DNA of 23,380 nt from an uncultured Oribacterium sp. GTDB taxonomy: Bacteria > Bacillota > Clostridia > Lachnospirales > Lachnospiraceae. How positions within the stretch are numbered: position 1 is the first letter of the stretch; the number at the start of each line of letters is the position of its first letter. Position numbers and translations under genes: made by a program. The notes beneath the pieces are model-generated. The model was not told the DNA's origin. It worked only from the letters and a program-made list of their open reading frames with translations, and did not search any database. Below, piece after piece: positions 4,432-23,380 of this stretch. The stretch spans positions 1 to 23,380 of the forward strand of contig CAKQWR010000009.1 in NCBI GenBank assembly GCA_934279105.1. Direction: 5' to 3'.

Positions 4432-5939
4432 AAAAGACGAAGCCACGTTTTATGCAGTCACTCCAGACGCGTCTCATGGTGCCGCTGATGCTGGTACTGT
4501 TCCTCATTATTATGGTCAATGTCGGCATGTTTCTGCGTGTGAACCGTTCGATCGACAATCTGAATACGGTATACAGTACGAGTGTGGAGATCACACGCTA
4601 CGGCAATACGCTGAATGGTCTGCAGAAAAGTTTCACGGAGTATGTGAATACACATAGTGATGAAGCCCTTCGGGAGTACCAGGACTGGCACCGGGAACTG
4701 GAAGCGATGGTGCCATCCGATGAGATTCCCCTCACGGATCGTCCGACACGCATCCTCGAGAAAAACATTCGCAGCATGACGCTGAGCTATCTTGCGCTGA
4801 TGGATGCGTCCGTGGCGAAAAAGAATATGGACAATGCATACTATCAGAATGATTATCTCGAAGCCAGTAAGGTATATAAATACCTGGTTACGAATATTCG
4901 CGCGCTGGATGTGTTGCGTTTCCAGAATAACTCGGAGAACTATGAGACGGTATATGCGTCTCTTCGAACGCTTGAGCAGTTTATTCTGCTTGCGCTGATT
5001 GTGATGTCCTGTGTGCTTCTGCTGCTGGTATCTCTGTTCCTTCGAACCATCATCCGCCCGCTTCGTCTTTTGGCAGAGCAGGCAAGGGAGGCAGAGGCCG
5101 GAAATCTCGATGTGAAAATCAGCGCGTCGCCTTATCATGATGAGGTCGGTGTGCTGGCGGCTGCCTTCGAACAGATGCTGCAGGCGATACGGCAGAATAT
5201 CCTGGAAATTCGAGCGCATGCGGAGCGGGAGCTCGAGATGAAGGAGAAGGAGCTTGTGACAGCGAATCTCCTGAAGGATGCGGAGCTGAAGTTTTATCAG
5301 GCGCAGATCAGCCCACATTTCCTCTTTAATACACTGAACGCTGGGCAGCAGCTGGCGATGATGGAGGGGGCGGAGAGAACCTACAGCTTCATGGAGAACA
5401 CGGCAGAATTCTTCCGCGGTCAGCTGCGGAATAACGGTAGTGATTCTACGATTCGTGATGAAATCGAGCTCGTGGAGAACTATATGTACATCATGAATGT
5501 ACGTTTCGGCAACGAATACAAGGTCGTAAAGAATCTGAATGAAAAGCTTCTGGGAACCCGCTTTCCAGGCATGGTGTTGCAGCCGATCGTCGAAAATACG
5601 ATTCATTATGCTTTTCCTGAGTGGCCAGAGGAAAAGGAGAAGAAAATCATCCTTCGCGTCTATATGGAGGATGGGCAGGTGGTCGTCGAGCTGCAGGATA
5701 ACGGTATCGGCATCACGGAAGAGAAGATTCGGGATATCATGACCGGATCGGTCACCCCGACGCAGGTTGGTGAGAGTGCACGACCACAGGGGAATGGTGT
5801 CGGTCTTCGCAATGTGAGAGAGCGTCTTAAGCTGTTTTATAACCGGGAGGGTGTGTTCTGTATCGATTCCGAAGGCGAGGACGGCGGCACACGCGTCCGA
5901 ATCATCGTGCCGGAAGAAGCGAATGAAACACATGCATGA
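4428..5939 (+). CDS. YesM-type sensor histidine kinase
   Basis: The protein has 503 residues. It has TM1 at about 15-36, an extracellular helical sensor region at about 37-184, TM2 at about 186-206, and HAMP at about 207-260 (IIRPLRLLAEQAREAEAGNL). A coiled-coil linker follows, then a His_kinase domain with ISPHFLFNTLN, where H297 is the phosphoacceptor. The ATPase domain has the N-box VLQPIVENTIHYAF (N390), DNGIGI (D424) and GNGVGLRNV (455-463). All catalytic elements are present. The kinase would autophosphorylate when the neighbouring binding protein engages ligand and pass the phosphate to the YesN-type regulator downstream. Its start overlaps the binding-protein stop by 4 bases. A 94-bp gap with a small hairpin separates it from the regulator gene. 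Confidence 0.93.
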   Translation: MKKTKPRFMQSLQTRLMVPLMLVLFLIIMVNVGMFLRVNRSIDNLNTVYSTSVEITRYGNTLNGLQKSFTEYVNTHSDEALREYQDWHRELEAMVPSDEIPLTDRPTRILEKNIRSMTLSYLALMDASVAKKNMDNAYYQNDYLEASKVYKYLVTNIRALDVLRFQNNSENYETVYASLRTLEQFILLALIVMSCVLLLLVSLFLRTIIRPLRLLAEQAREAEAGNLDVKISASPYHDEVGVLAAAFEQMLQAIRQNILEIRAHAERELEMKEKELVTANLLKDAELKFYQAQISPHFLFNTLNAGQQLAMMEGAERTYSFMENTAEFFRGQLRNNGSDSTIRDEIELVENYMYIMNVRFGNEYKVVKNLNEKLLGTRFPGMVLQPIVENTIHYAFPEWPEEKEKKIILRVYMEDGQVVVELQDNGIGITEEKIRDIMTGSVTPTQVGESARPQGNGVGLRNVRERLKLFYNREGVFCIDSEGEDGGTRVRIIVPEEANETHA

Positions 5940-8731: not shown

Positions 8732-9832
8732 ATGGCAAACGAAAAAACTATGAACATTCGGCCGGAGGATATCCAGGCCAGCAATCGTTACCATCGGAAT
8801 GTGGCCATCGTCATCGGCCTCTTCCTCGCCGTTCTTCTGATCATCCCTGCGTTCTTTAAGGATATGCCGTATATCATGAATGTTTTCATTCTGGTATTCT
8901 ATATGACGACGCTTTCGATGGCATGGAACCTGCTCGGTGGTATGACCGGACAGAATTCCCTCGGTCATGCAGCATATATGGGACTTGGTGCGTATGCCTG
9001 CTGTCTCCTGATGACGAAGACTTCGGTCAATCCATGGCTCTGCGGCATCTTCGGTATGATCGTGGTTGGACTCGTATCCGGATTCATCTTTTATCCTTGT
9101 TTCATCCTCCAGGGTCCATACTTCACGCTTGTAAGTATCGCCTTCGGTGAGGCCATCCGTCAGTTCATTCTGAACTGGGATTTTGCGGGTAAGGCCATCG
9201 GTATTTCCCTTTCCTTCGGAGAGGATTCCTGGGCTGAATTCCGTTTTATGAGTAAGGTACCGTACTATTATGTGGGTCTCATCATGCTGATTCTCACGTA
9301 CATCTTTATGAAGAAGATCGACCGTTCGAAGCTCGGCTTTGCACTGAAGACCATTCGTGAGGATGAGGATACGGCAGCCGCCATCGGTATCAACCCGATT
9401 AAGTATAAGGTCATCGCCGTTGTGATTTCTGCGATGGTCGCTGGTATGGTCGGTTTCTTCTATGCAAGCTATAACCGTTACATCGATCCGGATCTGATGC
9501 TTCAGACCTACTCGGTCGAGTCGGTACTTCCGGCGGTCGTCGGTGGTGCATCCTTCGTGGAAGGCCCACTCGTTGGTGGTGGTATCATGATCACCCTTTC
9601 CGAGTTTCTTCGAAACGAATTCGGTGCGATCCTTCCGGGCATCAACCTGATCATGTATGCAATCGTGCTGATCCTTGTGATCCGTTTCCGTCCGTCCGGA
9701 CTGCTCGGCTGGTACATGGACAGCAAGTTTAAGAAGTGGGTAGACAATGTAGTCCTCAAGAAGCCTTCTCGTGAGGTGCTCGAGGCTGCACAGCTCGCCC
9801 GGGATTATAAGAAATTAGGTAAGGAGGCATAA
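8732..9832 (+). CDS. livM: Branched-chain amino-acid-type ABC transporter permease LivM
   Basis: The protein has 366 residues. After a hydrophilic N-terminus come multiple membrane spans with the LivM signatures GGMTGQNSLGHAAYMGLGAY, ILQGPYFTLVSIAFGEAIRQ, LGFALKTIREDEDTAAAIGI (ATPase-contacting loop) and PAVVGGASFVEGPLVGG. The start is the ATG at 8732, two bases past the livH stop, with AAGGAGG at 8719-8725 inside the end of livH. The C-terminal tail (about 40 residues after WYMDSKFKKW) is hydrophilic and somewhat longer than in the E. coli protein by my recollection. Confidence 0.93.
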   Translation: MANEKTMNIRPEDIQASNRYHRNVAIVIGLFLAVLLIIPAFFKDMPYIMNVFILVFYMTTLSMAWNLLGGMTGQNSLGHAAYMGLGAYACCLLMTKTSVNPWLCGIFGMIVVGLVSGFIFYPCFILQGPYFTLVSIAFGEAIRQFILNWDFAGKAIGISLSFGEDSWAEFRFMSKVPYYYVGLIMLILTYIFMKKIDRSKLGFALKTIREDEDTAAAIGINPIKYKVIAVVISAMVAGMVGFFYASYNRYIDPDLMLQTYSVESVLPAVVGGASFVEGPLVGGGIMITLSEFLRNEFGAILPGINLIMYAIVLILVIRFRPSGLLGWYMDSKFKKWVDNVVLKKPSREVLEAAQLARDYKKLGKEA

Positions 9833-9834
9833 TT

Positions 9835-10584
9835 ATGGCAGAACAGTCCATCATTGAAGTTCAGCATATCACGAAGCGCTTCAAAGGTCTGACCGCCGTG
9901 AAGGATGTTTCCTTCGAGGTCGCAAAGGGAAAGATCACCGGTATGATCGGACCAAACGGTGCCGGAAAGTCTACCACCTTTAATATGATCTGTGGTTACT
10001 ATCCGCCAACCGAAGGGAAGATCCTCTATAAGGGTATCGATATTACAAACAAGCCGGCATATGAATACACGAAGATGGGCATCGCCCGCACCTTCCAGAT
10101 CATGAAACCGCTGAAGAATCTGACGGTGCTGGACAATGTAATCGCATCGTCCTACTATGGCACGAAGCCGGCGAAGAACGCCATCGAAGCACGTGAAAAG
10201 GCACTGGACATTCTGAACTTCACCGGTCTTTATGAAAAGCGTCATGACCTTTCGAAGGACATGGGTACTCCGGATCAGAAACGTCTGGAGATGGCGAGAG
10301 CCCTCGCGACGAATCCGGAGATGCTCTTCCTCGATGAGAACATGGCTGGTCTTAACCCGACCGAGACGGATGAGGCGATTCAGCTCATCCGTCGAATCAA
10401 CGAGAGTGGTGTGACGATCTTCCTGATTGAGCACATCATGAAGGCGGTTGTCAGTCTTTGCGAGGATGTGATCGTACTTCATCATGGTGAGAAGATTGCC
10501 GTCGGCACACCAGAAGAGGTTATGAACGATCCATACGTTATGGAGGTTTATCTCGGACAGAAGAAGGAGGACGCACATGCTTAA
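9835..10584 (+). CDS. livG: Branched-chain amino-acid-type ABC transporter ATPase LivG
   Basis: The protein has 249 residues. It contains Walker A GPNGAGKST, the LivG-type insertion, ARTFQIMKPLKNLTVLDNV (Q-loop region), Walker B MLFLDE and the switch His in LIEHIMK. The ABC signature is unusual: the position normally occupied by LSYG-Q-RRLEIARAL reads MGTPDQKRLEMARAL, so the Ser-Gly pair that contacts ATP gamma-phosphate is not evident. Its partner LivF has a normal signature, so one of the two composite ATP sites in a LivF/LivG pair could be degenerate. Start: ATG 9835 with AAGGAGG at 9821-9827. It overlaps livF by 8 bases. Confidence 0.92.
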   Translation: MAEQSIIEVQHITKRFKGLTAVKDVSFEVAKGKITGMIGPNGAGKSTTFNMICGYYPPTEGKILYKGIDITNKPAYEYTKMGIARTFQIMKPLKNLTVLDNVIASSYYGTKPAKNAIEAREKALDILNFTGLYEKRHDLSKDMGTPDQKRLEMARALATNPEMLFLDENMAGLNPTETDEAIQLIRRINESGVTIFLIEHIMKAVVSLCEDVIVLHHGEKIAVGTPEEVMNDPYVMEVYLGQKKEDAHA

Positions 10585-11323: not shown

Positions 11324-11367
11324 GCGCAGATTCATCCGATACCAAATAAAACATATAGAATCTGCGC
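11324..11367 (+). promoter_or_regulatory. Intercistronic stem-loop between livF and livK
   Basis: GCGCAGATTC (11324-11333) and GAATCTGCGC (11358-11367) are perfect 10-bp complements with a 24-nt A/T-rich loop and no following T-run. The position, ahead of the highly expressed binding-protein gene, fits an mRNA-stabilising or processing structure. Confidence 0.5.
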
Positions 11368-15056: not shown

Positions 15057-15082
15057 CTGGCGCACCGTGCAGTGATGGAGCA

Positions 15083-15140
15083 CCGAGTGCCGGCATCAGA
15101 AGCACAGTCTCTCCGTATGGCTTCTGCTACCAGCACTCGG
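15083..15140. repeat. Hairpin element copy B
   Basis: CCGAGTGC...CAGAAGC (15083-15103) pairs with GCTTCTG...GCACTCGG (15120-15140), 18 of 21 positions complementary, around a 16-nt loop ending CTCTCCGTATG. Compared with copy A read on the minus strand, it shares the CAGAAGC stem top, the CAGT and CTCTCCGTATG loop modules and GCTTCTG. It lacks the 17 nt that form copy A's cap hairpin. It lies 26 bp after the CLC gene stop. It has no T-run; the terminator is further on. Confidence 0.65.
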
Positions 15141-15183
15141 GGGGCTCTGTCTGTACGGCCACTTCACTGGTTATGGTAGCAGT

Positions 15184-15219
15184 TCAGCCGGGAAGTTTTC
15201 TTTACTCCGGCTGATTTTT
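15184..15219 (+). terminator. Rho-independent terminator after the CLC gene
   Basis: TCAGCCGG (15184-15191) pairs with CCGGCTGA (15207-15214), followed by TTTTT. It ends the MBL-CLC transcript and marks the left edge of the gene-free island. Confidence 0.8.
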
Positions 15220-15236
15220 AAGGGATGTCCATAATG

Positions 15237-15331
15237 GGCGTCTCTTTTTGTTTGCCTGCCCACCCATGGTACATCTTTTATCTACTTACATATCGGACCC
15301 GTCCCATGCGGGCAAACAAAAAAACGACGCC
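15237..15331. repeat. 20-bp imperfect inverted repeat with T/A-rich arms
   Basis: The left arm 15237-15256 (GGCGTC ... TTTTTGTTTGCC) and the right arm 15311-15331 are reverse complements apart from a 2-3 nt difference after GGCGTC. The spacer is 54 nt. The T-run lies within the left arm rather than after the structure, so this is not an ordinary terminator for either strand. It may be the terminal repeat of a very small element or the outer boundary of the adjacent array. Confidence 0.5.
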
Positions 15332-15351
15332 ATATCCATTCTCTTCGTCAC

Positions 15352-15907
15352 CATGCATACGATTGGCAGATGCACTGGTTTTCTGAATTCAGCATTACCA
15401 GTGTTGGCAGAGGCCTTGATTTCCAGAATTTAACATTGCCATCGTTGACAAACGGGCAGGTTTCTGAAATTCAGCATTGTCGTCGTTGACAGATGCCTTG
15501 ATTTCCCAAATTCAGCATTGCTGTTATTTTACAAAATCGAGCAATCCGGGAATTCAGCATTGCTGATTTTTCGCAGAATGAAGATTTCTGAGAAAATACA
15601 TTACCAGTCTCCTTGATTTTTTACACAGTATGAGCTGAATCAGAAAATCCACATTACAAATCGACAATGCTGATTTTCTGAAACCCTCACTTCTGTGTAA
15701 AATCCACTGATTTTTACGGGAGCAAAGGTAGAAGATAGCAATGCTGTTTTTCTGAATGTGCTCGGATTGCCAACACTGGCAATGCTGTTTTTCTGAATGT
15801 GTTTGGAATGTCAACACCAACAATGCTGTTTTTCTGAAAGTATCCGATCTGCCAACACAGGTAATGCTACTTTCCGGAAATGTTTCATCTGACGATTTTT
15901 TCTAATG
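15352..15907. repeat. 41-bp-period array arranged as a large imperfect palindrome (array 1)
   Basis: No gene is supported here. On the left arm, units begin with CATT (first one CATG) at 15352, 15393, 15434, 15475, 15516, 15558 and 15599, spaced 41, 41, 41, 41, 42 and 41 bp. The left-arm consensus is roughly CATTGCCATCGTTGACAGAT, then about 10 variable bases, then TTTCTGAAATTCAG. On the right arm the same units are inverted and end in AATG at 15743, 15784, 15825, 15866 and 15907, every 41 bp exactly. Left starts and right ends pair in register about one axis (sums 31341-31342). The centre is a hairpin: CAGAAAATC (15641) with GATTTTCTG (to 15680), and TTTTACACAG (15619) with CTGTGTAAAA (to 15702). 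The right arm has about 21 nt extra between the centre and its first unit. Confidence 0.8.
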
Positions 15908-15927
15908 TAGTTTTCCAATAAGCAGAT

Positions 15928-16022
15928 GTTTGAGGTCTCCTCATGAGCAGGGGGGCGGGTTCAATACATATAAGAAGCCACGAATTTCATGGGGGGGTGG
16001 GCGAATGAGGAGCGCTTCAAAC
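15928..16022. repeat. Inverted repeat flanking two G-rich blocks
   Basis: GTTTGAGGTCTCCTCAT (15928-15944) and ATGAGGAGCGCTTCAAAC (16005-16022) are complementary except in the middle few bases. Inside, G6-C-G3 (15950-15959) and G7-T-G3 (15991-16001) lie on the same strand. It follows array 1 directly. The function is unknown; a structured RNA or a decayed small element would both fit. No coding potential is evident. Confidence 0.5.
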
Positions 16023-16095
16023 TTCTTAGAAGAGCCAGGAAGGCTGAATTGTTACGGGTTATGAGCGATAGAACAATACATCATGGCGCGCTGCG

Positions 16096-16124
16096 TTGAC
16101 TTCGGAAATGCTGGGTGCTAAGAT
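16096..16124 (+). promoter_or_regulatory. Sigma-A-type promoter upstream of the CodA-type deaminase gene
   Basis: TTGACT (16096-16101), a 17-bp spacer and TAAGAT (16119-16124) give 5/6 and 4/6 matches to consensus. Transcription would begin near 16131. A terminator follows only about 20 nt later, before the deaminase gene, so most transcripts might be short unless read-through is allowed. Confidence 0.6.
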
Positions 16125-16152
16125 GTGGTGCATATGAAAAAGGCAGGCAAGG

Positions 16153-16184
16153 GCGCTGAGGATGTTGCATCCCCGGCGCTTTTT
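16153..16184 (+). terminator. Terminator (possible attenuator) in the deaminase leader
   Basis: GCGCTGAGGATG (16153-16164) pairs with CATCCCCGGCGC (16168-16179), with one G-U pair and one mismatch, followed by TTTTT. With the promoter at 16096-16124 it defines a transcript of roughly 55 nt. It also shares the lead-in GGCAAGGGCGC with the terminator after the deaminase gene (17633-17669). Confidence 0.75.
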
Positions 16185-16199
16185 GTTATGCTATGGGCA

Positions 16200-16265
16200 G
16201 AGTCTGTCTGCAGCTGTGAGCACGGCTGAAGTGTGTGCTTCGGCAGGATGAACTGCAGCGGGAGA
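16200..16265 (+). other. Possible structured leader between attenuator and deaminase gene
   Basis: Two CTGCAG hexamers at about 16209 and 16252 can pair, and they enclose a 7-bp hairpin GCTGAAG-TGTGTG-CTTCGGC. Together with the upstream terminator this could be a switchable leader RNA. It matches no riboswitch class I recognise; a purine-riboswitch core was looked for and not seen. The rest of 16185-16344 shows no gene. Confidence 0.25.
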
Positions 16266-16344
16266 GGAAGGAACTGCCCTGTGTGCGGGTATCCTTATGG
16301 TGTACTTACGCATGTCACTTTCATAAGAGGAGAGGTATAGGAAT

Positions 16345-17610
16345 ATGAAGAAGTTTATCAATGTCAGGTTAAAGGGGTCACAGAACTTAAATTCGATTTA
16401 TGTCGAGAATGGTGTGATCCGTAAGATCATGCTGGGTACGAGCGAGGATAACAGCCTGAGCGGTGAGGACTGTGAGACCATTGATGTGCAGGGACATCTG
16501 GTGGTGCCGCCATACGTGGATCCGCATCTTCATCTCGATTATGTGTTTACCGCAAGCCTCGGTGAGAATAATGGCTCGGGTACACTGTTTGAGGGTATCC
16601 AGCGCTGGAGTGAGTCGAAGGGACATATGACGGTACCGGAGATGAAGGAACGTATTTACAGTGGCATCAAGAAGGAGATGCTCCATGGTGTGCAGGCGAT
16701 TCGTACGCACATCGATGTGACGGACCCAAGCTTTACCGGACTCAAGGCAGCGCTCGAGGTGCGGGAGGAAGTAAAGGATATCCTCGATCTTCAGATCGTG
16801 GCGTTCCCGCAGGAGGGCATGTATGCCTACAAGGGCGGCGATGAGCTGGTAGAAGAGGGCCTCAAGATGGGCGCAGACTGTGTCGGTGCGATCCCACACT
16901 TCGAGCTGGCCCGGGAGTTCGGCGAGAAGTCGATTCATAAGACCGTCGAGCTGGCACTGAAGTATGACAAGCTGATCGATGTACACTGCGATGAAACCGA
17001 TGATACGCAGAGTCGTTTCCTGGAGCTGCTCAATGCACTCGTCCTGATGGAGGGCATCGGTACGAAGACGACGGCGAGCCATACCTGCTCCTTCGGTTCT
17101 GCGGACAACAGCTACGCCTTCCGCATGATGAAGCTCTTCAAGAAGTCCGGCATCAACTTCATTTCCTGCCCGACCGAGAACATCTACCTTGAGGGGCGTC
17201 AGGACAGCTATCCGAAGAGACGAGGCCTCACCCGTGTAAAGGAGCTCCATGATCAGGGAATCAATGTCTGCTTCGCGCAGGACTCGATGTCTGATCCGTG
17301 GTATCCGCTCGGAAACGGCAACATGATGATGATCCTCGACCATGGCATCCATATCGCACAGATGATGTCACCGGAGGAGATTCAGGATGATTTGGATCTC
17401 GTGACGACGAACGGTGCGATTACCATGCATATCCAGGATCGTTATGGTATCGAGGAAGGAAAGCCGGCGAACTTCATCGTGCTCGACGCGAAGAGTGAGT
17501 TCGAGGCGATCTGTGAGCGTGCAGGCATCCTCGCATCGGTACGGAAGGGCGAGTTCCTCTTTCAGAAGGAACCGGCGAAGGTAATCGGAGCAATCAATCT
17601 GCTGAAATAA
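16345..17610 (+). CDS. CodA-type amidohydrolase (cytosine deaminase family) with Ser at position 314
   Basis: The protein has 421 residues and is similar to E. coli CodA along its whole length, with almost the same numbering. The metal ligands are H61 and H63 (PHLHLD), H214 (DVHCDE) and D313; Q156 (FPQEG), E217 and H246 (ASHT) also fall at the E. coli positions. Other matches are SGTLFEGIQRW, RTHIDV, DLQIVAFPQEG, GAIPHFE, YPKRRG.TRVKE and DPWYPLG. The E. coli GHDDVFD loop is AQDSMSD here, so the substrate-contacting D314 is Ser and the preceding His is Gln. CodA hydrolyses cytosine to uracil and ammonia. With this change the natural substrate could differ (isocytosine, isoguanine, creatinine or another cyclic amidine). 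RBS AGGAGAGG precedes the ATG. A terminator follows, then an NhaC-type transporter. Confidence 0.88.
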   Translation: MKKFINVRLKGSQNLNSIYVENGVIRKIMLGTSEDNSLSGEDCETIDVQGHLVVPPYVDPHLHLDYVFTASLGENNGSGTLFEGIQRWSESKGHMTVPEMKERIYSGIKKEMLHGVQAIRTHIDVTDPSFTGLKAALEVREEVKDILDLQIVAFPQEGMYAYKGGDELVEEGLKMGADCVGAIPHFELAREFGEKSIHKTVELALKYDKLIDVHCDETDDTQSRFLELLNALVLMEGIGTKTTASHTCSFGSADNSYAFRMMKLFKKSGINFISCPTENIYLEGRQDSYPKRRGLTRVKELHDQGINVCFAQDSMSDPWYPLGNGNMMMILDHGIHIAQMMSPEEIQDDLDLVTTNGAITMHIQDRYGIEEGKPANFIVLDAKSEFEAICERAGILASVRKGEFLFQKEPAKVIGAINLLK

Positions 17611-21702: not shown

Positions 21703-21774
21703 TGTGTAGAGGGCTATAGTTTGTGTTATTGTCATGAGAGCAGCTGTTTCACGAAATAAGGTCTTTCTTCATCC

Positions 21775-22206
21775 ATGACATTAAGAATTTCTGGGATTTT
21801 TACAATTCCTTGAATTTTCCTCTCTATGACATAAGCTGAGTTTCGCAAAACGTTGATATTCTGCCTCCATGCCATTAGTTTTTTCTTAGATTCTCACAGA
21901 ACTATCGATATCCTTCATCGTGACATTATCGGCTTTTCGCAAACTGCCTGAATTCTCACTTCATGCCATTATCTATTTTCACAGACGAATCCGTATCTTC
22001 AAGTGCGACATTATATTTCAACTCTCAAAGGCCGTATACATCCTTTTATTCGGAGACCTTTCGGCTTTGACTTAATGTCACTTGTTTTAAAAACGAGGTC
22101 ATTGCGTCAAAAAACGTAAATTCATTCAAAAATCACCTCGGGATATTTCGATGAGTTAATGTCACAAGTTTCTATAGAACACGGTCTGCGAAAATACCTG
22201 ATGTCA
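21775..22206. repeat. Second diverged palindromic array with 42/43/51-bp units (array 2)
   Basis: No gene is supported here. TGACATTA-like cores have CATT (once CATA) at 21779, 21830, 21873, 21924, 21967 and 22009, spaced 51, 43, 51, 43 and 42 bp. The 51+43 pair repeats as a 94-bp dimer: the 43-bp units at 21830 and 21924 share GAGTTTCGCAAA / GGCTTTTCGCAAA and both end in CATGC. The right arm has inverted cores TTAATGTCA at 22072 and 22156 and GATGTCA at 22200 (spacing 84 then 42). One expected unit near 22116 is unrecognisable. Left and right cores are in register about 22043 for the inner units. TTTTCGCA occurs at the same offset in a unit of array 1 (15558), so the arrays look related. Confidence 0.65.
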
Positions 22207-22264
22207 TCTCGTCGTAAATCAGCGATTTTGTGAAAAGAAGCAGAATAAGCTACCGCGTAAAAAC

Positions 22265-22544: not shown

Positions 22545-23380
22545 ATGAGAAAGAAAAAGCTGACAAAAACGTTGGCGGTCCTTCTGACGGCGGGCATGCT
22601 GACGCAGACCATGCCGCTTTCTGTTCTGGCAGAGAACGTGGAAGCTTCTTATGAAGCGAGCATGTCCGGAACAGAAAGCAACACCGGAAAGGTGAGCGCA
22701 ACAGAAGCAGGAAACACATCCACTGTGGGGGGTAGAACGGACACAGAATACCGCAACAGAAAACACATCTGATGTGGGAAATTCCGAGAACACCGACACA
22801 GCTGCGGATGACGCTCAGAATTCGGTCACGAGCATTGAACGCCCATCGCAGTCGGATACAGTAGAGATGCTTCCAGGAACGCCTGCGCAGAACGGACTGA
22901 TCCCGAAGGAGGATACGGCCAATGCAGGCTCTTCGGAGTCGGGCACTTCCTCAACAGAGGCTGGTACCGCAAGTGGTACGAGTGGTTCCACGACGGGAGA
23001 AAGTGGAACAGCCGGCCCATCTACCGGAGCATCCGATACCACGGGAACGACATCCGGTGCGCCGAATGAACCCGGTCCAACTGGCAGTGCGGCAGACAGT
23101 TCCTCAGGTTCTGCCGATACGACAGGCGCAACCGACACATCGACAGGCACAGCCAACACTTCGACTGGCGCAAGCGACACGTCGACAGGCGCAGCCAACA
23201 CTTCGACAGATGCAACCGACACGTCGAATGGCCCTACCGGTACCGCGACGGAAACGACCGACACAAGTACGGACGAGATCAAAGAGCCGGATTACACGCT
23301 GTTGTACGATAAGGAAACGAAACATTTTAATATTACGTTCAACATCCAGGACGGCGCAGAAGGTGATCAGACCATCGAAC
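22545..23380 (+). CDS. Exported Ser/Thr/Gly-rich surface protein, frame interrupted at a G6 tract (partial)
   Basis: A strong GAGGAGG precedes the ATG. The product starts MRKKKLTKTLAVLL with a signal peptide ending near SVLAEN (residues about 1-30). In the frame as written it stops at 22770-22772 after 75 residues. Removing one G from the G6 run at 22727-22732 joins this frame to one that stays open to the window end (STVG|VERTQNTATENTSD...). The joined protein has a long Ser/Thr/Gly/Asp-rich, mucin-like region with 7-residue repeats. It then changes at about 23275 to a folded-looking segment (EPDYTLLYDKETKHFNITFNI) cut by the window edge. It is probably a large cell-wall or extracellular protein. 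The break is either a phase-variable tract, a pseudogene mutation or a sequencing error. Confidence 0.7.
22727..22732 (+). repeat. G6 homopolymer at the frameshift site
   Basis: Six consecutive G residues lie just after the signal peptide. With G5 the two open frames join without any stop; with G6 translation ends 13 codons later. Position (early) and gene type (exported, repetitive) fit a phase-switch tract, although six is short for high-frequency slippage. Confidence 0.6.
23122..23226 (+). repeat. Five tandem 21-bp repeats encoding TGAxDTS-type heptads
   Basis: Five 21-bp units begin at 23122, 23143, 23164, 23185 and 23206. They encode TGATDTS, TGTANTS, TGASDTS, TGAANTS and TDATDTS. D-T-S and N-T-S units alternate. 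They lie in the stalk-like region of the surface protein and are in the frame that is open downstream of the G6 tract. Confidence 0.85.

What the first reader, a model, noticed from the sequence alone, without database searches (positions are those of the whole stretch)
15352..15907. A 41-bp-period array folded into a ~560-bp palindrome, with no gene
Twelve recognisable units keep a 41-bp spacing with only one 42-bp step, although their sequences have drifted. They point toward a common centre in which two further stems share one exact dyad axis (15660.5). Left and right units pair in register after a single ~21-nt offset. Spacing conserved better than sequence suggests selection on geometry: 41-42 bp is about four helical turns, so a protein could bind one face in phase. 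A very long RNA hairpin is the other simple reading. Units are adjacent without unique spacers and too diverged for a recent tandem duplication. I know of no named element with this design.
Basis: seen in the sequence. Interest (0 to 1): 0.78.

Follow-up and report, generated by a model that had tools for sequence, protein, structure and literature searches.

The report
Hairpin array inside a jumping element
The repeated 41-base palindrome is the filling of an 880-base gene-less jumping DNA element in a bacterium close to the Lachnospiraceae, similar in design to the pneumococcal BOX repeats but larger, and is probably not a stand-alone regulatory site.

Summary
The array is real: 12 units, one 42-bp step, 41-bp autocorrelation 0.476 against at most 0.315 in 500 shuffles. 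It fills the middle of a gene-less mobile element, window 15176-16055 (880 bp), with 14-bp terminal inverted repeats (GTAGCAGTTCAGCC / GGCTGAATTGTTAC), an 8-bp target duplication (TGGTTATG / GGGTTATG) and a hairpin module near each end. The closest relative's locus lacks it. That relative (G001) has 67 sites matching the terminal repeat (5 in the control) and many copies with the same ends but other cores, whose best repeat lags are 94, 64-65 or 72 bp, or mosaics. At 8 bp, 7 of 11 complete pairs show target duplications; 0 of 110 cross-pairings do. In another relative, elements with the same ends carry 53-54-bp hairpin arrays. So 41 bp belongs to one core class and is no universal helical phase. 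Pairing between the arms is no better conserved than expected by chance in the one comparable copy, and unit numbers per arm differ. Best reading: a BOX-like modular non-autonomous element, perhaps moved by an IS66-related transposase, whose core grew by tandem and inverted duplication of hairpin units. Function of the cores: unproven.

The parts
15168..15175 (.). left copy of the 8-bp target duplication, TGGTTATG
   Evidence: 7 of 8 identical to 16056-16063; the relative L001 has GGGTTATG once in its intergenic stretch, at 11337
15176..15189 (+). left terminal inverted repeat GTAGCAGTTCAGCC
   Evidence: 1 mismatch to GTAACAGTTCAGCC; 67 such sites (up to 2 mismatches) in relative G001 against 5 for the control
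15236..15332 (+). left hairpin module (LH)
   Evidence: aligned with 19 copies from G001, 85% mean column identity; 3 pairs with changes on both sides, 11 cells, 9 broken cells
15349..15636 (+). left arm of the core: 7 units at 15349, 15390, 15431, 15472, 15513, 15555, 15596
15619..15702 (.). centre: nested stems on the axis 15660.5
   Evidence: fold; inverted repeat I9
15706..15910 (-). right arm of the core: 5 units starting (on the - strand) at 15746, 15787, 15828, 15869, 15910
15922..16026 (+). right hairpin module (GA)
   Evidence: 14 places in G001 (one a 27-bp fragment), none in 60 other relatives at E 0.01; aligned with 13 of the 14
16042..16055 (-). right terminal inverted repeat (GTAACAATTCAGCC on the - strand)
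   Evidence: homology with L001 resumes exactly at 16056
16056..16063 (.). right copy of the 8-bp target duplication, GGGTTATG
21740..22240 (.). second array in the window, of another core class (ATGMCATTA ... TTTTCRCARA units), without recognisable ends; not part of the element
   Evidence: lag 94: 0.492 in its left part, 0 of 200 shuffles reach it; words shared by eye with the class-B cores; no TIR, LH or GA match there

Best explanation
The array is the core of an 880-bp non-autonomous transposable element (window 15176-16055). Shown: terminal inverted repeats, 8-bp target duplications, hairpin modules next to both ends, absence from the closest relative's locus, and many sister copies with the same ends and other cores. 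Inferred: a transposase supplied in trans, perhaps of an IS66-related clade, recognises GTAACNGTTCAG ends; the cores grew by tandem duplication of short hairpin-forming units (41 bp in this class) plus one inverted duplication around 15660, and are swapped between elements by recombination. The regular spacing is then a record of tandem duplication with few indels, and the palindrome a by-product of an inverted duplication, not a protein-phasing device. Outside effects (bending, pausing, terminating or stabilising transcripts of neighbours) are possible, as for BOX, but untested.
For: The relative L001 (95% identical neighbour protein) has 243 bp between the two genes where the window has 1288; window homology on the right starts exactly at 16056, the base after the terminal repeat (108 bp, 88% identity), at the only GGGTTATG of that stretch. 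TIR sites in G001: 67 against 5 control. At exactly 8 bp, 7 of 11 complete TIR pairs have 7-8 matching flank bases; 0 of 110 cross-pairings do; lengths 5, 6, 7, 9 and 10 show no such signal. LH and GA modules recur in the same order around different cores: 12 of the 17 other elements or regions cut out match the window in both. Cores differ: best lags 41, 94, 64-65, 72. A class-A core homologous to window 15380-15815 (76% identity) lies at another G001 locus, C13. The exact 14-mer TIR occurs in 19 of 98 genomes (G001 among them), up to 157 times, control 3 in all; 5 of 13 pairs cut out there have 7-8 of 8 duplication matches; in G012 two such elements carry 53-54-bp hairpin arrays. IS66-type transposase genes lie between GTAACTGTTCAG-like ends in L253 and L247, and GTTACTGTTCAC ends in L255/L259; IS66 insertions give 8-bp repeats (PMC3916326, PMC11946415, passages read).
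Against: No gene-bearing element with exactly GTAACAGTTCAGCC ends was found; G001's own IS66 ends with GTAAGCGCTCAGTGT; no 8-bp duplication was found around L253 or L247; and G051, G017 and G038, which bear the TIR, have no IS66 hit. Class-A arrays also lie in G001 without recognisable ends (C13, C6; C29 is cut off by a contig end), so the core may be an older element of its own. L001 also lacks about 50 bp just left of the site and about 110 bp further right (window 16164-16292), so its 'empty' site is not perfectly clean. Four of 11 pairs have no target duplication.
Confidence: 0.82

Rival explanations
1. The array works as a very long structured RNA (or single-strand DNA) hairpin kept by selection, e.g. 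a transcript stabiliser, terminator or double-strand-RNA source.
For: Folding energy z -5.95 and -9.3; 11 of 17 cores of the family have z of -4 or lower on at least one strand, with only 12 shuffles each; the left hairpin module shows 3 compensated pairs in 20 copies; terminator-like sites 4 against 1.3 expected in 15057-16345; one core group (A7, 3 rows) has a covariation term above its column shuffles on the + strand, -4.35 against a mean of -9.51 in 8 shuffles, higher being better.
Against: Class-A arms: 92 of 124 (+) and 94 of 126 (-) pairs kept, null means 90.9 and 93.3; unit counts of the arms differ between copies; covariation terms of the other two core groups are about equal to or worse than column shuffles (A5, A6); Rfam gives no match at gathering score. 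The arm test has only two copies and is weak.
Confidence: 0.1
2. The units are binding sites for a protein bound on one helical face, or subterminal sites of the transposase itself.
For: 41 bp is close to four turns; units point in from both ends, as in transposons with subterminal repeats (recalled: Tn7, Ac/Ds).
Against: Elements with the same ends have cores with other lags and other words; a 102-bp copy, too short for such an array, and a 523-bp copy with a 230-bp core of another class both have perfect 8-bp duplications, so these units are not needed for movement.
Confidence: 0.04
3. The class-A array is itself an old independent palindromic repeat family that became captured between the LH and GA ends.
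For: Copies without LH, GA or TIR nearby at C13 and C6 of G001; metagenome frame P0001 runs into other flanking sequence, P0002 into a GA-like module (read by eye).
Against: In the window the array fills the space between LH and GA almost completely; free copies may be elements whose ends decayed.
Confidence: 0.3

Closest known systems
BOX elements of Streptococcus pneumoniae and S. suis (PMC3049150; passages read)
   Same: non-coding, dispersed, TIR and target duplications, different end modules with a variable tandem array of stem-loop-forming middle modules between them; several module types in S. suis; proposed mobilisation in trans by an IS with similar TIR
   Different: BOX are 67-637 bp, ten of the 11 complete pairs here 523-1231 bp (one mini form of 102 bp); cores here contain inverted arrays and several different unit classes; TIR and likely transposase differ; sequence relation to the published box models was not tested
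MITEs (miniature inverted-repeat transposable elements)
   Same: TIR, target duplication, no gene, high copy number
   Different: larger, and filled with periodic hairpin arrays; the 164-219-bp elements with the same TIR in G025, G051 and G060 look like ordinary MITEs
IS66-family insertion sequences
   Same: 8-bp target duplication; ends starting GTAA; several IS66-type elements in relatives have GTAACTGTTCAG or GTTACTGTTCA ends
   Different: no gene in this element; ends not identical to any IS66 found
REP/BIME and other palindromic repeats (recalled)
   Same: clustered short hairpins in intergenic DNA
   Different: no TIR or target duplication in REP (recalled); units here are in regular 41-bp arrays

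Membership tests
non-autonomous transposable element (MITE-like) | terminal inverted repeats | tested here: met
   15176-15189 and 16042-16055, one mismatch each to the family 14-mer
non-autonomous transposable element (MITE-like) | target-site duplication | tested here: met
   7 of 8 in the window; 7 of 11 complete pairs, null 0 of 110
non-autonomous transposable element (MITE-like) | multiple dispersed copies | tested here: met
   in G001: 17 LH sites, 14 GA places, 67 TIR sites
non-autonomous transposable element (MITE-like) | no transposase of its own | tested here: met
   no ORF of 80 aa or more inside except an 89-aa repeat frame
non-autonomous transposable element (MITE-like) | filled versus empty site in related genomes | tested here: inconclusive
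   L001 lacks it, has one octamer and resumes exactly at the right junction, but lacks about 50 bp more on the left
BOX elements | distinct end modules around tandem middle modules | tested here: met
   LH - core - GA in the window and in 12 of 17 other elements or regions
BOX elements | boxA/boxB/boxC sequences | not tested
   the published box models were not compared; I do not file it as a BOX
IS66-mobilised element | 8-bp target duplication | tested here: met
IS66-mobilised element | TIR identical to a resident IS66 element | tested here: not met
   G001 IS66: GTAAGCGCTCAGTGT; nearest in other genomes GTAACTGTTCAGAACC (L253)
IS66-mobilised element | movement by the transposase | not testable with these tools
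   needs a transposition assay

The most novel reading that the evidence does not exclude
These elements are shuttles for exchangeable, lineage-specific hairpin-array cassettes whose repeat period (41, 94, 53-54, 64-65) is renewed again and again between the same ends, because a long periodic hairpin core itself does something for the element or the host (for example protecting or silencing neighbouring transcripts, or raising transposition), so that geometry without fixed sequence is the selected cargo.
Probability: 0.15. Interest if true: 0.75.

Novelty: new variant of a known kind. Interest (0 to 1): 0.45.

Why it matters
It turns an apparently stand-alone palindrome into part of a mobile family whose ends occur in 19 of 98 related genomes searched, and it suggests that BOX-like modular, gene-less elements are not a streptococcal speciality. 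Because the same ends carry cores of different period, the family offers natural replicates for asking how periodic hairpin arrays arise and whether they do anything.

Tried and rejected
Rfam scans (whole window: 0 matches at gathering, 15060-16345: one chance-level match, a snoRNA family, E 0.33). Phage and plasmid searches with the array: the listed matches are short with E 2 to 7 (20 of 68 records listed, 2 records). Viral contigs with an LH and a GA word: 0 hits each. Blastn of the array in 98 relatives: only G001 at E 1e-4. Unit model R1 in 195 relatives: strong hits only in G001; 35 others have weak hits (best E 1.3e-4), of which I read two by eye (L112, a ribosomal-RNA-like region; L111), both unlike. 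R1 on 24 element and control loci: one weak hit, L219 1089-1125, E 0.0048. Autocorrelation surveys of 357 kb and of 168 kb outside long ORFs, both with overlapping loci: no further class-A array; rows from masked N runs and coding repeats I disregarded. Promoter-like sites 3 against 2.0 expected, terminator-like 4 against 1.3. Covariation tests: see the rivals; the - strand pair count (91 of 126) judged wobble pairs by the letters of the wrong strand and is replaced. The core lags had no control; supplies one. Literature: nine searches; no listing named a Lachnospiraceae element of this kind. One search was swamped by CRISPR papers, searches found no paper, and most subscription journals are not held, so this is weak evidence of absence.

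Full report
Observation. Twelve units step by 41 bp with one 42-bp step (three of the starts were read by eye), autocorrelation at 41 bp is 0.476 against a shuffle maximum of 0.315, and the two central stems do share the axis 15660.5. The arms are unequal, seven and five units. In the alignment of successive unit pairs from the window and G001, the invariant or nearly invariant columns lie around CAGCATT and TTGRCA, with a looser TTTCWGAAA.

What surrounds it. The nearest genome found, MAG L001 (G001 in the genome tool), has a 95% identical chloride-channel protein but 243 bp, not 1288, between it and the next gene. Window bases from about 15109 to 16055 have no counterpart there. The missing part contains, in order: a terminal repeat GTAGCAGTTCAGCC (15176-15189), a hairpin module (LH, 15236-15332), the array (15349-15910), another hairpin module (GA, 15922-16026) and the inverted terminal repeat (16042-16055). 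The flanks are TGGTTATG and GGGTTATG. Homology to L001 resumes exactly at 16056, at the only GGGTTATG of its intergenic stretch. L001 also lacks about 50 bp immediately to the left, including one arm of a terminator-like hairpin, and about 110 bp further right (window 16164-16292), so its site is not a perfectly clean empty site.

The family. G001 has 67 sites within two mismatches of GTAACAGTTCAGCC against 5 for the reversed control, 17 LH sites within one mismatch against 0 and 14 GA places, one a fragment. I cut out 18 elements or element regions, the window's included; of the other 17, 12 match the window in both LH and GA, four in LH only (C40, C41, C56, C66) and one in neither (C49). For 11 complete TIR pairs the flanks match in at least 7 of 8 bases in 7 cases, and only at length 8; 0 of 110 cross-pairings do so. 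Mini-palindromes of 39-50 bp and overlapping pairs were left out of this test; one search lists their flank matches, at best 6 of 8. The 11 pairs are 102 to 1231 bp long.

The cores. Elements share ends but not cores. Besides the window's class A (CAGCATTGCC..., lag 41) there are a class with GCCATTA...TTTTCACARA words, and classes with ATGCTGTATCAAAACAGC, ATCGTGCCTACGG and ATCCAGTATTTT words; some elements are mosaics, such as C64b (classes named by eye). Tested against 300 shuffles each, the best lag is 41 for the window; 94 for C6, C40, C41, C66 and C68 (0 of 300 each); 64-65 for C18a, C18b and C64a (0 of 300), C1 (4), C42 and C10 (5 each) and C32a (13); 72 for C49 (0). C32b, C5 and C64b show no lag clearly beyond shuffles (167, 205 and 18 of 300). 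Cores of one class are homologous, so these are not independent. In 17 cores folded on both strands z runs from -0.5 to -9.3 (12 shuffles each); 11 have -4 or lower on at least one strand. A second window array, 21740-22240, shares the words of the GCCATTA class and has no recognisable ends.

Where else. Class-A arrays: three further places in G001 (C13, C6, C29), and two translated metagenome frames, P0001 (80% identity) and P0002 (48%), found with the window's 89-aa repeat frame; by eye P0002 also runs into a GA-like module. LH within one mismatch: 3 of 397 genomes of the family, G001 with 17 sites and two genomes with one site each, which I count as chance since the control also hits once. 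GA: only G001 of 61. The TIR is far wider: exact 14-mers in 19 of 98 genomes, G051 157, G060 75, G012 45, G025 31, G019 28, G017 16, G001 15, with 3 control hits in all. Of 13 pairs cut out of other genomes, 5 have 7-8 of 8 duplication matches. Those of G025, G051 and G060 are short elements of 164-219 bp with inverted stretches by eye, but the G012 elements L288 (348 bp, 7 of 8) and L289 (378 bp, 3 of 8) are filled with 54- and 53-bp tandem units that contain short hairpins by eye. So filling such elements with periodic hairpin arrays has happened in at least two genomes, with different periods.

Mobilising enzyme. IS66-family elements make 8-bp duplications (PMC3916326 and PMC11946415, passages read), and the latter gives GTAAGCG as the start of their ends. 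G001's own IS66 has GTAAGCGCTCAGTGT. Among 32 IS66 loci examined, four have ends within one mismatch of GTWACTGTTCA on both sides: L253 (1824 bp, GTAACTGTTCAGAACC / GTATCTGTTCAGAACC), L247 (2207 bp) and two copies in one genome, L255 and L259 (2270 bp); L254 and L302 list only poor pairs, the other 26 none. L247 and the G001 proteins carry the IS66 transposase domain. Against this, no 8-bp duplication was found around L253 or L247, three TIR-bearing genomes of eight searched have no IS66 hit, and no gene-bearing element with exactly GTAACAGTTCAGCC ends turned up. I put IS66-type mobilisation at about 0.55, lowered from 0.6 when I put the missing duplications on record.

Is the hairpin selected? 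For class A I could compare only the window and C13. Of 124 aligned pairs of the + strand fold 92 are still paired in C13 (permuted substitutions 90.9, 769 of 2000 as good); of 126 on the - strand 94 (93.3, 860 of 2000). C13 has 5-6 left and 2 right units (alignment). The LH module, in 20 copies, has three pairs changed on both sides, 11 cells, with 9 broken cells. GA, in 14 copies, has none on the + strand and three pairs, 4 cells, with 19 broken on the - strand. For the other cores (8 column shuffles each; higher is better) the covariation term is about that of the shuffles for A5 (6 rows), is worse for A6 (5 rows), and is better for A7 on the + strand only (3 rows, -4.35 against -9.51). So the LH hairpin looks maintained or self-corrected; for the long class-A hairpin there is no such sign, though a test with two copies is weak.

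Mechanism. Shown: a dispersed, gene-less element with TIRs, 8-bp duplications and two sub-terminal hairpin modules. Inferred: transposition in trans; growth of the core by tandem duplication of self-complementary units (88% identity over 59 nt in the right arm; two nearly identical neighbouring C13 units, by eye) and an inverted duplication about the centre; exchange of cores by recombination. The 41-bp regularity then needs no phasing protein.

Comparison and novelty. The design matches BOX elements, which have boxA and boxC around a tandem array of boxB, TIRs and target duplications, stem-loop folding and a proposed IS-borne mobiliser, in sizes of 67-637 bp (PMC3049150, passages read). This family differs in TIR, size, inverted arrays and variety of cores; sequence relation to the box models was not tested. 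I file it as a non-autonomous transposable element working like BOX, not as a BOX. Novelty: new variant of a known kind.

Noticed in passing
window 21740-22240: A second, more degenerate inverted array of another core class (ATGMCATTA/TAATGTCA words, lags 43 and 94) without recognisable ends, between a peptidyl-prolyl isomerase-like frame and a secreted-protein-like frame (named by eye).
   Followed up: partly
L019 7047-7319 and L015 about 9575-9930: Just upstream of the chloride-channel gene two other genomes carry tandem 53-bp hairpin arrays at the same locus with different stem sequences (ATACGGAC... against CCCACTAA...), sharing ACTAAA; terminal repeats not looked for.
   Followed up: partly
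G051 (157 sites), G060 (75), G012 (45): The exact 14-bp terminal repeat GTAACAGTTCAGMC is very frequent in some relatives; the pairs cut out of G051, G060 and G025 are 164-219 bp long.
   Followed up: partly
L140 about 4796-4870 and L104 about 5784-5837: Single class-A-like hairpins next to T runs look by eye like bidirectional terminators, which hints that array units may descend from, or become, terminators.
   Followed up: no
window 23120-23227: 42-bp tandem repeat inside a reading frame at the window's end; not compared with the array beyond its consensus.
   Followed up: no
window 15076-15160: Terminator-like hairpin after the chloride-channel gene; by eye its descending arm is missing in L001.
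   Followed up: partly
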